Shown: piece by piece, positions 13,770 through 18,029 of the stretch
Position numbering within the stretch: the first letter of the stretch is position 1
How the letters are laid out: every line of letters begins with the position of its first letter
Assembly (NCBI RefSeq): GCF_000429945.1
Contig: NZ_AUCV01000005.1
Coordinates: 124,001 to 188,000, forward strand
Length of the DNA: 64,000 bases
From: Desulfogranum japonicum DSM 18378
Lineage (GTDB): Bacteria; Desulfobacterota; Desulfobulbia; Desulfobulbales; Desulfobulbaceae
Direction: 5' to 3'
Notes under the pieces: model-generated
Databases searched by the model: none
What the model saw: only the letters and a program-made list of their open reading frames with translations
Told to the model about the DNA's origin: nothing
Made by a program: the position numbers and the translations under genes

Positions 13770-14000
13770 ATGGATTTGGATTTTATATATGTTTCGGTTA
13801 TCAATCTTGGTATTAATCTCATTTATACGATCGTGGCTCTTTTTGTAAGCATTCTTTCGCTGGTAATCGTAGATAAAAAACTGTTGCCTGGTATTTCAAT
13901 CGAGGAAGAAATGAAAAAAGGCAATATTGCCGTAGCTATTTTTGCTTCAACCATTTTGATTTTTGTAGCTGTGATTGTCACATTTGGATTTAAAGGATGA
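13770..14000 (+). CDS. DUF350 family two-helix membrane protein
   Basis: Small membrane protein of 76 residues with two predicted transmembrane helices (about 8-30 and 50-73) separated by GISIEEEMKKGNIAVAIFAS, the hallmark of DUF350 proteins. Function is unknown. AGGGAG lies ahead of ATG 13770. Its stop overlaps the next start by four bases (ATGA), so it is coupled to the transglutaminase-like protein, suggesting they act together at the membrane. Confidence 0.88.
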   Translation: MDLDFIYVSVINLGINLIYTIVALFVSILSLVIVDKKLLPGISIEEEMKKGNIAVAIFASTILIFVAVIVTFGFKG

Positions 14001-14794
14001 AAAAATGGCTTTGTAAATCAGTGGTACTTGGAGGGCTTCTTATGACAGCCTTCCTTGTTGCAGTAACTCCTCGTTCAGATAAAGAGATTATTGCAGAAAA
14101 TGAAGTGGAAATAGGTGGCTCCTCCCAGACTGTCCCCGGAAATCTTCAGAGGGCTATCTACATTTATCAACTGAAACAGTGGTTAAGTACCGAAGCTGTT
14201 CAAGGGATGTTACAGGCATCTGCAAACAGCTCTGGGACTGTGTTCTACTCCATGGATACCGTCAAAGAGTTTACTGCGTCAGCTCCAGGCATTGACCTGC
14301 GGCATCACATAGTGAGTAGTTATCTTGTCGGATATGTGCCTTTTGAAACAAAGAATATATGGGTACCCTGGCTAACACTCAGCCGGCGCAAAATGTATCA
14401 GACGGATAAGATCACCTACAAGGGAAGAAAGGATGTCTGGCAAAACAGTAAGCAGGCATATACGTTACCGAGAGGTGATTGTGAGGATCATGCCTTGTCA
14501 CTTGCAGACTGGCTTATAAGCATGGGACAGGATGCAAGAGTAGTTCTTGGCACATATAAAGGTACAGGACACGCATGGGTAATACTCTTCCGGGAAGGAA
14601 AAGAATATCTGCTTGAAGCCACCCAGAAAACGGGTTTCAACCAGATGAAATCTCTCCCTTTGGCTTCTTATTATCCCGATTACAGGCCAATGTATATGTT
14701 TAACAGGAAATGTTTTTGGAAAAATTACGGGTCTTCTCTGACAACCCGCTATAATTCTTCCGATTGGAAAAAGAAAAGCATTTATTCATTATGA
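13997..14794 (+). CDS. exported transglutaminase-like cysteine protein
   Basis: Protein of 265 residues with an N-terminal signal or anchor helix (about 5-26) and a transglutaminase-like papain-fold core. The presumed catalytic triad is visible: Cys in GDCEDHALSLADWL, His in GTGHAWVILF and the acidic residue in YLLEAT. Such proteins act as peptidases or crosslinkers; the substrate is unknown. It overlaps the DUF350 gene by four bases and converges on the E2-like membrane protein gene with only 8 bases between stops. A periplasmic location is inferred from the N-terminal helix. Confidence 0.85.
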   Translation: MKKWLCKSVVLGGLLMTAFLVAVTPRSDKEIIAENEVEIGGSSQTVPGNLQRAIYIYQLKQWLSTEAVQGMLQASANSSGTVFYSMDTVKEFTASAPGIDLRHHIVSSYLVGYVPFETKNIWVPWLTLSRRKMYQTDKITYKGRKDVWQNSKQAYTLPRGDCEDHALSLADWLISMGQDARVVLGTYKGTGHAWVILFREGKEYLLEATQKTGFNQMKSLPLASYYPDYRPMYMFNRKCFWKNYGSSLTTRYNSSDWKKKSIYSL

Positions 14795-14802
14795 GCCAGT
14801 CT

Positions 14803-17187
14803 TTACCCATTATACACTGACCAGGTTTTGGTTTTTTCATCATACATGTAATTCAGTTCCAGGCGTGAGGAGCTTCCCTGACTACGCTCAATGCACGAAA
14901 TGGAAAAAATATGCTTCTCACCACTTTTTCGTAAAAATGTAACTTTGGGAGAGTGTAGCTTGGACCCCTGGAATGTAGGATAGTTGGCGCGAAAAATCTC
15001 AACAAAGTTCTGTTTCAGATAGTCGATTTTTTTGTTGAGTTCAATTTCCTTTCTACGCGCTTCAATTTGCTCATTTACAGTGTCTGTAATGCTTTTGATG
15101 TCATCATCATATTGCAGGGGACTCGACCCGATAAGTCGCAGTATGTCCTTTGAATAGTTGATAACAGCATTCAGATCCTTTTGACTCTCAGCCAGTAACA
15201 CTTTTTCCTGAAGTTGAGCAATTTTAACTTTGAGTAGTGTCTTTTGAATCTTACGAATGGAGTCGTCCAGCAATCCTTCAAAATTTGCTGATTCGGAAGC
15301 CAGCAAGTCGAGGGCTTTCTGGTATTGGGCTATTGTTTCAAACCAATCTTTTTCGTGGTAAGCTTCACGGGCAGCAGACAGGATTTTATAGAGTGTGGAG
15401 TTGACCAGTAAGCGATGAAGATCCTGTCGTTCTCGAGTGGAGACAATGCCTGGATTTTCGTTAATCATTTTTTGAGCTTGCTCAAGGGTATCAACTGTTT
15501 CCTGCCATTCTGACTGGGTGAAGGATTTTTTGGACTTATCGAGTTGAAGCCGAAAAGATGCTGCTGTTAATTTATGGGTGATTTCATTGGCCGTTTCTGG
15601 ATCAGAAAGGCTTCGGGAGAGTTCCAATGCCTGCCGGTAGGTTTCGGCTGCCTGTTTCCAATCCTGTCCCATCTCAGCCTGTTCAGCGTGGGAAAGCGCG
15701 AGCTGCAACTCCAATGCTTTTATGATGCTTTCCAGTTCAGGGATTTTGTGGTTTATATCGTTTTTCTGCGCATACGCCAGTGCCTGTTGATAAAGAGTCA
15801 ATGCACTACGGGGTTGGCTTTGTTCAACCAGGGCTTTGGCCTGCTCGACTAAAACCGTGAATTCGCGTAGAGAATTTGCAACGGAAACAGGCATATATTC
15901 GCCCTGGTAGAGAACATTTCCCATGAGCCCTTCTCGCATTTCCTTAGATTTCAGAAGGGTAACTATTTCATTCTCCAGTTTGGATTTACGAAATCTAAGG
16001 ATGGATAGGCCTGAAAGCGCTTCCCGTGCAGACTCAAGAGTGGTTCTGGCATCATCAAACTGCATTTTATCAATGAGCAGCTGGCTCCTGAGAATGTTAG
16101 CCTGAGTACGGCTTACAATATTTTGGTCTTTAAAGTAAAGGCTGATTCCTCCAAGGCAGATTGCGAGGAGAAGGGCTGTTACCAGAATCAGTCTGAATGG
16201 AATTGCAAAATTCAGCTTTGGTAAGGATTTTTTTATCCGAATTTTAGGCAGTGGCGGAGGTGATATTTTTGTATCTTTGGAAGAGCTCTCCAAGGTATCC
16301 TGCGTACGCTCTTCACCGGAAGACGTGGTGATCGTAAAACTATACGCCTGCTCAACCCTTTCACGTAATTCGTCAACTCCAGGAGCATCAGTGGCTATTT
16401 CATATATATTTTCTACGACCTCCAATGCTTCATCAAATTTACCCACTTCTTCCAGTTGATCTACAAGTGAGTAGAGCTGGTCGACTTTTCGGATATTTTT
16501 ACCAATAGACTGCTGCAGAGACTCACGATCAGGCATGTCTGCAGACGGAGAAAGCTCGGCAAGGCGTTTATTTGCAGTGTAAATCTGTTTTGATTCAACA
16601 AGCTCCCTGATATAGGCAATGTCAGCTTCGCTGTGTTCTTTCGCCGGTTGAAGAAATTCATCTGTTTCCAGACCAAGAGAGGCGAATGTGTCGTCGACCA
16701 GGGAATCAATATCCTGAAAGGACTCTTCTATATCTGCAATATTTAAGGTGTCCAGAGGAAGACTGGCCTGATGCGCAAGATACCAGTCAGCGGCTTCCTG
16801 ATTAAAAGGATCTTCAAGATTGTATTCATTGCCGCTGATCATCTCCCCTATATATACGATAAGATCAGCCAAGGAAGGATTTTCCTGCCATTTATCCGCA
16901 ATGCGGATGGCAGCAGGGTCGACATCGGGATGAAATATATTTGTAACCGGCTTAACAGTAGGCGCAAAGTGTGGATATCCAAAAGGAAGGCTGATACGTA
17001 CCCTATGGGTGTGTTCAATGATTATACTGCTATCATGAGCTTTTACATACCCCTGCAATGCGTATTCAATCTCATAGTTGTCCGGTGGCTGTCCTTCGGT
17101 ACGTATGATACTGATTTTGGGGTAGAGCTCGAGAGTGCTTTGGAGTTGTTCGTAATCGTCGGCTAGTTGTTGAGAACCCGATGCCAT
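14803..17187 (-). CDS. membrane protein with cysteine-less E2/UEV-like domain and helical repeats
   Basis: A 794-residue protein without a clear named family. Residues 8-140 look like the ubiquitin-conjugating (UBC/RWD) fold: LPFGYPHFAPTVKP, then TNIFHPDVDP (HPN-like, 86-88), IADKW, PSLADLIVYIGEMI and PFNQEAADWY in the right order. The catalytic cysteine is missing: R95 sits at its place, and no cysteine occurs before the membrane helix. A basic stretch (314-324) and one transmembrane helix (about 331-352) follow, predicting a cytoplasmic N terminus. The rest is tetratricopeptide-like helical repeats and a C-terminal beta-rich end, predicted periplasmic. No E1, JAB protease or ubiquitin-like gene is nearby. 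Function unknown. Confidence 0.8.
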   Translation of the reverse strand: MASGSQQLADDYEQLQSTLELYPKISIIRTEGQPPDNYEIEYALQGYVKAHDSSIIIEHTHRVRISLPFGYPHFAPTVKPVTNIFHPDVDPAAIRIADKWQENPSLADLIVYIGEMISGNEYNLEDPFNQEAADWYLAHQASLPLDTLNIADIEESFQDIDSLVDDTFASLGLETDEFLQPAKEHSEADIAYIRELVESKQIYTANKRLAELSPSADMPDRESLQQSIGKNIRKVDQLYSLVDQLEEVGKFDEALEVVENIYEIATDAPGVDELRERVEQAYSFTITTSSGEERTQDTLESSSKDTKISPPPLPKIRIKKSLPKLNFAIPFRLILVTALLLAICLGGISLYFKDQNIVSRTQANILRSQLLIDKMQFDDARTTLESAREALSGLSILRFRKSKLENEIVTLLKSKEMREGLMGNVLYQGEYMPVSVANSLREFTVLVEQAKALVEQSQPRSALTLYQQALAYAQKNDINHKIPELESIIKALELQLALSHAEQAEMGQDWKQAAETYRQALELSRSLSDPETANEITHKLTAASFRLQLDKSKKSFTQSEWQETVDTLEQAQKMINENPGIVSTRERQDLHRLLVNSTLYKILSAAREAYHEKDWFETIAQYQKALDLLASESANFEGLLDDSIRKIQKTLLKVKIAQLQEKVLLAESQKDLNAVINYSKDILRLIGSSPLQYDDDIKSITDTVNEQIEARRKEIELNKKIDYLKQNFVEIFRANYPTFQGSKLHSPKVTFLRKSGEKHIFSISCIERSQGSSSRLELNYMYDEKTKTWSVYNG

Positions 17188-17399
17188 ATATTGCCCTGTA
17201 TGTGAAAAAGACTGCTATGAGTGTAATAGTAAAATTCAACCTTATCGTCACATATTGTATAGTATTTTTATCAGTGAAACAAGGCGCATTCCAGTGGTTG
17301 TGTAAAAATGACGACGGTTTGAAAAGCGAACTTTTCTTTGAGTGAATTCTAGATGTTGTGTACAATGACACTAAGTATAACCATGATCCTCAGGAATAT

Positions 17400-18029
17400 A
17401 TGGCTCCGTTTAGTCTAACTTTTCAGATAACAGAAGAGCGTCGTTGTCCTTTTTATAACCTTGAAGAGGGCATACAGCTCAATGATCAAAGCGTAAAACT
17501 CCCCCTGGGGAAACCCGTCTGCCTGATTTTAATCAGGGAACTAACAGGTTTACTGTTCTCTCTTTTACCGCTTGATACCAGCGAATTGGAACAGAAAAAA
17601 AAGGAGATATTCACCTGCGGGGGGTGCACCGGCCTGATTAAGTTCAAGATAACTGATAAAATTTTGTTTCCTACCGATTTTTCACCCGAAGCATCTGAGG
17701 GCGATGGAGCAGTTATAACAGGACAGGTAGATGCCATCCTTCCTGCCGAGTTACTGCAGGTTTTTCATATGCATCAGAAGACAGGACGCTTGATTATGGA
17801 AGTTACCGGAGGGGCTGCCAGAATTACTTTTCGAGAGGGGGGCCTTCTTGCGGCACGGTTTGAAGAGTTGGATAATCAGGAGGCCATTTATGCACTTTTG
17901 TCGGAAAAAAAAGGGACTTTTCGTTTTATTCCAGGACTACCTGATTCTCTTATGCAGGCCAGGGAGATCGGGGATTTTATGATGATTCTTATGGAAGGGC
18001 TGAAGCGTCTGGATGAAGATGAGCGATGA
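17400..18029 (+). CDS. DUF4388 (PATAN-like) domain protein
   Basis: Cytoplasmic protein of 209 residues. The second half carries a DUF4388 domain: GQVDAILPAELLQVFHMHQ, TGRLIMEV, ARITFREGGLLAARFE and EAIYALLSEKKGTFRF, a module common in Deltaproteobacteria signalling and gliding proteins. The N-terminal half has an unrecognised beta-rich region with FTCGGCTG. ATG 17400 has AGGA upstream; a GTG at 17358 is an alternative. It is divergent from the E2-like membrane protein gene. Role unknown, perhaps regulatory. Confidence 0.8.
   Translation: MAPFSLTFQITEERRCPFYNLEEGIQLNDQSVKLPLGKPVCLILIRELTGLLFSLLPLDTSELEQKKKEIFTCGGCTGLIKFKITDKILFPTDFSPEASEGDGAVITGQVDAILPAELLQVFHMHQKTGRLIMEVTGGAARITFREGGLLAARFEELDNQEAIYALLSEKKGTFRFIPGLPDSLMQAREIGDFMMILMEGLKRLDEDER

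What the first reader, a model, noticed from the sequence alone, without database searches (positions are those of the whole stretch)
14803..17187. Membrane-anchored, cysteine-free ubiquitin-conjugating-enzyme-like protein in a sulfate reducer
Residues 8-140 carry the order of motifs of the E2 fold (YPHFAP, FHPDVD, IADKW, DPFNQEAADW). The position of the catalytic cysteine is arginine 95, and no cysteine exists before the membrane helix at 331-352, so it resembles eukaryotic UEV proteins, which bind but do not conjugate. Here the domain is joined to a membrane helix and a large predicted periplasmic array of helical repeats. No E1, JAB or ubiquitin-like gene is near, which separates it from known bacterial Ub-like operons. 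It may be an envelope scaffold that borrowed the fold.
Basis: partly seen in the sequence, partly recalled or inferred. Interest (0 to 1): 0.75.

Follow-up and report, generated by a model that had tools for sequence, protein, structure and literature searches.

The report
Membrane protein with inactive E2 head
A sulfate-reducing bacterium carries a membrane protein whose inner end has the shape of a ubiquitin-conjugating enzyme but lacks the reactive cysteine; many relatives keep that cysteine, so it looks like a bacterial enzyme turned into a binding module, much as eukaryotes made their own dead E2 variants.

Summary
The gene is on the minus strand (14803-17187, 794 aa). Residues 1-158 match Pfam UQ_con above cut-off and model confidently as the E2 fold. 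Arg95 aligns with the catalytic Cys. The first cysteine is 344, in the membrane helix. Beyond the helix lies a TPR solenoid, probably periplasmic.

Two things change the reading. (1) It is an apparently vertical, nearly always single-copy family: 114 of 193 sampled genomes of its order, Desulfobulbales. (2) The family is not cysteine-free: of 120 distinct in-order domains, 70 have Arg, 36 Cys and 7 Lys at position 95. By genome, family f1 has Arg in 41 of 44, f12 Cys in 26 of 28; f3 is split. Rooting favours ancestral Cys. None of the 120 has the HPN asparagine.

The closest relative found outside the order has HPN and Cys and sits in an E1/JAB/RING-like/FHA gene set. Most sampled Desulfobulbales have no JAB or RING hit over cut-off.

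A divergent four-cysteine/DUF4388 gene is a close companion: all 86 hits above 98 bits are adjacent.

Most likely: a pseudo-E2 adaptor coupling this cytosolic partner to the envelope. Function is inferred.

The parts
14803..17187 (-). whole gene, 794 aa: E2-like head, TPR-bearing linker, one membrane helix, TPR ectodomain, terminal beta domain
   Evidence: homologous E2 domain in 114 of 193 genomes of the order
16714..17187 (-). E2 (UBC)-fold head, residues 1-158
   Evidence: Pfam UQ_con; PDB profile; AF2 pLDDT 94.5; fold searches
16903..16905 (-). codon of Arg95, opposite the catalytic cysteine of E2 enzymes; Cys in 36 of 120 distinct in-order homologous domains
16210..16713 (-). linker on the cytosolic side (inferred), residues 159-326, with a TPR match at 237-270; variable length among homologues
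16141..16209 (-). membrane helix, about residues 327-349; more Lys/Arg on its N-terminal side (6 against 2 in 20 residues)
   Evidence: hydropathy and charge count
14806..16131 (-). ectodomain, residues 353-794: TPR solenoid; the stretch after the helix is 433-456 aa in 66 of 74 homologous ORFs with a helix
14806..14961 (-). C-terminal four-stranded beta domain, residues 743-794, with a nearly invariant Cys (765) and an invariant Trp
17188..17357 (.). 170-base intergenic region between two divergent genes, possible shared promoter region
   Evidence: gene geometry; promoter not tested
17358..18029 (+). divergent partner: N-terminal four-cysteine domain (17406-17657) plus DUF4388 domain

Best explanation
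A single-pass inner-membrane adaptor. Its cytosolic head descends from a cysteine-bearing bacterial E2 and lost the cysteine (now Arg95) in the Desulfobulbaceae, so here it cannot form an E2~Ubl thioester at that site. The head probably works as a binding module, as UEV proteins do in eukaryotes. Its most likely cytosolic partner is the divergently encoded four-cysteine/DUF4388 (PATAN) protein, which in other families of the order also carries a cyclic-nucleotide-binding domain. The periplasmic TPR arm and terminal beta domain would hold an envelope client, so that the pair couples a cytosolic signal to an envelope structure. Shown: fold, Cys/Arg distribution, one predicted membrane helix, TPR, gene linkage. 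Inferred: which side each part lies on, head-partner contact, signal coupling.
For: E2 fold. R95 opposite the catalytic Cys; of 84 in-order domains without Cys95, 70 have Arg, 7 Lys, 1 His (related sequences, not independent events). H86 and P87 are kept in 122 of 122 domains and W100 in 121 of 122, so the site is still constrained. Nearly always single copy, 114 of 193 genomes. 74 of 77 ORFs have a membrane helix, 61 of 74 with more Lys/Arg on the N-terminal side; 433-456 aa after the helix in 66 of 74. Partner: all 86 hits above 98 bits lie divergently beside the E2 gene and none is in a genome without it; it is adjacent in 9 of the 10 family-f3 loci (one of them a 67-aa piece), where the other usual neighbours are mostly replaced. 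Prok-JAB over cut-off in 8 of 42 genomes and Prok-RING_1 in 1 of 42 (G521); no Prok-JAB match in the window's genome.
Against: No interaction, localisation or expression data. The partner profile was built from adjacent copies, which favours them. 13 of 74 ORFs do not show the positive-inside bias. Cys95 in 36 of 120 domains could mean that catalysis still exists in other families. Weak Prok-JAB matches at E<=0.001, mostly under cut-off, occur in 29 of 42 genomes.
Confidence: 0.5

Rival explanations
2. The head binds a Ub-like protein non-covalently, as Tsg101 or MMS2 do, and so recruits a modified client to the membrane.
For: E2 fold without the cysteine; inactive E2-like domains thought to bind Ub-like moieties are described beside bacterial polyUbl genes (PMC1779556, passages read).
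Against: Ubiquitin-family hits in the genome are all under cut-off (best E 0.013), no Prok-JAB match, no Prok-RING_1 match.
Confidence: 0.1
3. A purely structural envelope scaffold: the E2 fold is a folding unit that anchors the TPR arm, with no specific cytosolic partner.
For: Conserved length of the arm after the helix, while 26-28 of 114 E2 genomes lack the high-scoring partner.
Against: H86, P87, D90 and W100 stay invariant or nearly so, more than a passive plug should need; strict adjacency of the high-scoring DUF4388 gene.
Confidence: 0.15

Closest known systems
Pfam UQ_con (PF00179) E2 enzymes, e.g. UBE2C, UBE2N, UBE2S
   Same: fold; YPxxxP, HP and downstream Trp landmarks; over the Pfam cut-off
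   Different: Arg for Cys, Asp for the HPN Asn, membrane helix and TPR arm, no E1 or JAB hit nearby
Eukaryotic UEV proteins (MMS2/UBE2V, Tsg101, AKTIP/FTS)
   Same: E2 fold without the catalytic cysteine, used for binding (recalled); the Fts-Hook3-FHIP1B structure is at Z 12.0, 133 residues, 4.4 A
   Different: bacterial, membrane-anchored, with a TPR ectodomain; Arg at the site; other families of the order keep Cys
Inactive E2/RWD-like domains of bacterial polyUbl operons (PMC1779556, row 6e, passages read)
   Same: bacterial E2-fold domain lacking the cysteine
   Different: those sit with polyUbl, E1 and JAB genes; no such gene was found beside this one
E2 of the E1-JAB-FHA-RING-like gene set in genome G521 (L190)
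   Same: closest E2 outside the order by the family profile among 395 phylum genomes (E 6.6e-39)
   Different: 361 aa without a membrane helix, with HPN and Cys, inside a conjugation-type gene set; zinc-ribbon hits are weak and under cut-off
E2-TPR-membrane helix protein of genome G217 (L191, 1054 aa)
   Same: Cys-less E2 head over the UQ_con cut-off, weak TPR matches, one membrane helix
   Different: Asp at the Cys position but HPN kept; other family of the phylum; long coiled C-terminal part (by eye)

Membership tests
E2 ubiquitin-conjugating enzyme | UBC fold | tested here: met
   pLDDT 94.5; Foldseek and VIA-align rows shown are E2-fold chains; UQ_con over cut-off
E2 ubiquitin-conjugating enzyme | catalytic cysteine | tested here: not met
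   Arg95 in the window protein; Cys in 36 of 120 distinct in-order domains
E2 ubiquitin-conjugating enzyme | HPN asparagine | tested here: not met
   HPD here; no Asn in any of 120 in-order domains
E2 ubiquitin-conjugating enzyme | thioester transfer with an E1 and a Ubl | not testable with these tools
   no biochemistry; no Prok-JAB match and no ubiquitin hit over cut-off in the genome
UEV (E2 variant) | E2 fold without the catalytic cysteine | tested here: met
UEV (E2 variant) | non-covalent binding of ubiquitin or of an E2 partner | not testable with these tools
   no Ubl candidate identified
Bacterial Ub-like conjugation operon component | E1 and JAB encoded beside it | tested here: not met
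   no ThiF or Prok-JAB hit in the window; conserved neighbours are SIS-CBS, HAD, HD, SecDF-like and DUF4388 genes
Anti-phage defence system | match to PADLOC defence models; mobile distribution | tested here: not met
   only a weak E2 model hit, E 0.011; no relative confirmed in viral contigs or plasmids; nearly always single copy across the order
TPR protein | TPR helical repeats | tested here: met

The most novel reading that the evidence does not exclude
Bacteria made their own UEV: an ancestral membrane-tethered E2 of the Desulfobulbales, possibly still active in the Cys95 members, lost its cysteine more than once (to Arg in Desulfobulbaceae, to Lys and to Arg in lineages of family f3) and became a transmembrane receptor head paired with a PATAN/cyclic-nucleotide partner. 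The Cys95 members would then be E2s working at a bacterial inner membrane without a JAB/RING operon.
Probability: 0.15. Interest if true: 0.85.

Novelty: new variant of a known kind. Interest (0 to 1): 0.58.

Why it matters
A 2024 survey reports only single instances of human-like E2 catalytic domains in bacteria, in four phyla that do not include this one (PMC11354881, passages read). Here an E2-fold protein that passes Pfam's UQ_con cut-off is found, with its kin, in 114 of 193 sampled genomes of one order, and the catalytic cysteine is present in some families and replaced in others. That gives a natural series in which the change from enzyme-like to binding E2 can be tested; some host species are in culture (strain records).

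Tried and rejected
Defence-system reading: rejected. A Ub-like system elsewhere in the genome: the ThiF hits on contig C48 of G000 lie in what I read by eye as a YcaO-type peptide-modification cluster (no model match run); the other ThiF hits of G000 were not examined one by one. A weak UQ_con hit on C14 (E 0.04) lies in another long protein and was set aside. The transglutaminase-like gene at 13997-14794 as partner: it joined no cluster with genes of the other 56 loci.

Co-variation of Cys95 with a cNMP domain in the partner: 49 of 52 loci agree (27 Cys with cNMP, 22 non-Cys without; exceptions L085, L079, L216). Two short partner ORFs (L076, L061) were dropped. The tree allows only 2-3 independent pairs and the sign test gives p 1, so this is unproven.

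Beyond the phylum only one genome-contig scan was possible; it kept 80 of 154 confirmed loci, titled mostly as Desulfobulbales, two as Desulfobacteraceae and the rest as unplaced bacteria. It uses short peptide patterns of this family, so distant E2s would be missed.

The linkage count used rows picked: 86 rows above 98 bits plus two truncated rows (G180, G166; 82.5 and 75 bits) chosen because they lie at the locus. Lower-scoring paralogues elsewhere were left out, and the listing was itself cut. The tree kept column 95 in; the one left the head out.

Full report
What is there. The reading frame is on the minus strand, 14803-17187, 794 aa. Its genome has one copy.

Head. Residues 44-139 match Pfam UQ_con at E 8.7e-8, 32.3 bits over a cut-off of 27; 49 of 50 aligned homologues match on their own at E<=0.01, though several score under Pfam's cut-off: of the 12 phylum genomes that match, 7 are over it. 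The AlphaFold2 model of residues 1-158 (50 rows) has pLDDT 94.5. The 50 Foldseek rows shown are E2s or E2 fusions, with moderate TM-scores; VIA-align's best is UBE2S, Z 13.2 over 128 residues at 2.6 A. The profile alignment with UBE2C (E 4.9e-9) sets R95 against its catalytic cysteine. The protein's two cysteines are 344, in the helix, and 765.

Membrane and arm. A hydropathy count found a helix after residue 150 in 74 of 77 E2-bearing ORFs; 61 of 74 have more Lys/Arg on the N-terminal side, which by the positive-inside rule puts the head in the cytosol; the part after the helix is 433-456 aa in 66 of 74. The 77 include out-of-order rows (L190, L191), a broken copy (L214) and a cut-off ORF (L217). 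The arm is TPR by profile and by model (pLDDT 94.1), ending in a small beta domain.

Distribution. The head profile finds 114 of 193 genomes of the order, 50 of the 51 same-family genomes listed; G155 has only a broken copy and G061 has two copies. In a phylum sample, 13 of 395 genomes match the profile and 12 of 395 match UQ_con; outside the order these are G521, G217 and, by the profile only, G267. No relatives were confirmed in viral contigs or plasmids.

The cysteine. Among 70 distinct ORFs, position 95 is R 37, C 25, K 4, A 2, P 1, H 1. Among 122 distinct domains of at least 110 aa (from 208 aligned pieces; duplicates and short pieces dropped) it is R 70, C 37, K 7, P 3, A 2, H 1, S 1, D 1. 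Leaving out the G521 row (Cys) and the G217 row (Asp) gives 120 in-order domains with 36 Cys. The HPN position is Asp in 114, Glu 3, Ala 3, Asn 2, the two Asn being G521 and G217. By genome: f1 R 41, A 2, S 1 of 44; f12 C 26 (one with a second, Pro-bearing copy), H 1, R 1 of 28; f3 C 7, K 7, R 2 of 16; f6 C 1 of 1. On the 70-row tree the Cys label needs 3 changes. On the tree with outside rows the Desulfobulbaceae rows, two with Ala95 and with one Pro95 copy of another family (L074) among them, are one group (98) nested among lineages that include Cys-bearing ones, with 80-90 support at the deep forks; long outgroup branches are flagged. So ancestral Cys is favoured, not proven.

Origin. G521's E2 (HPN, Cys) follows, in one direction, ThiF-E1, JAB, FHA and Prok-RING_1 genes and is followed by DnaJ-like, AAA-like and subtilase-like genes (the last three by eye). 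G217 has a Cys-less E2 head with weak TPR matches and one membrane helix. G267 has a more distant Cys-bearing E2 beside an E1-like gene (E1 by eye). Among 40 sampled Desulfobulbales plus G521 and G217, Prok-JAB is over cut-off in 8 of 42 and matches at E<=0.001 in 29 of 42; Prok-RING_1 is over cut-off in 1 of 42 (G521) and matches weakly in 3 more; ThiF is over cut-off in 42 of 42. Most of these genomes thus show no dedicated cascade of the G521 kind. ThiF alone is uninformative, since cofactor pathways need it (established knowledge).

Partner. Upstream and divergent lies a protein with an 84-residue domain of four invariant cysteines and DUF4388. In three of the four partners scanned, those from other families (L052, L054, L073), a cNMP-binding domain lies between; a sequence search finds it in 29 of 52 partners. 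DUF4388 corresponds to PATAN (recalled), a domain found near MglA/MglB genes (PMC4316618, passages) and in Myxococcus proteins mentioned in work on type IV pili (PMC11580455, passages). All 86 hits above 98 bits lie divergently beside the E2 gene and none in a genome without it; 28 of 114 E2 genomes lack such a hit, 26 if two truncated adjacent copies are counted. In the 10 family-f3 loci the SIS-CBS/HAD/SecDF neighbours are mostly replaced while the partner stays in 9, one as a 67-aa piece, which argues for a functional tie beyond general synteny. In the 57-locus comparison the partner cluster appears in 42 stretches, the SIS-CBS cluster in 44, the SecDF-like one in 36.

Mechanism. See Best explanation. 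The step from linkage to physical binding, and the nature of the periplasmic client, are inference. Literature: among the papers listed none is on this protein family (listings and abstract starts seen); inactive E2-like domains in bacterial polyUbl operons were described in 2006 (PMC1779556, passages). The listings are short parts of the hits and the library lacks most subscription papers, so prior description cannot be excluded.

Noticed in passing
window 17358-18029 (+): DUF4388 protein with an unnamed N-terminal domain of four invariant cysteines (CPxY, C, CxGC); lower-scoring paralogues elsewhere in the order, some in genomes without the E2 gene.
   Followed up: partly
window 13997-14794 (+): Transglutaminase/CEP76-peptidase-like protein with an N-terminal hydrophobic stretch, beside the E2 gene only in this genome among the loci compared.
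   Followed up: no
G000 contig C48, 11000-29000 (L201), outside the window: Two YcaO-like proteins, a ThiF-like protein, a radical-SAM-like protein and a Cys-rich precursor-like peptide: probable peptide-modification cluster, by my reading of the ORFs.
   Followed up: no
L074 7325-8923 (G061), also L147 and L153: Relatives with Pro at position 95; in G061 it is a second, shorter copy (532 aa) with its membrane helix near residue 167, besides the syntenic one.
   Followed up: no
L192 5468-15577 (G267): Gene set with E1-like, Cys-bearing E2, JAB-like and AAA-like proteins and two that look like Pup-ligase/deamidase relatives (all by eye except the E2).
   Followed up: no
L214 (G155): Broken E2 copy with two TAG stops in one same-family genome.
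   Followed up: no
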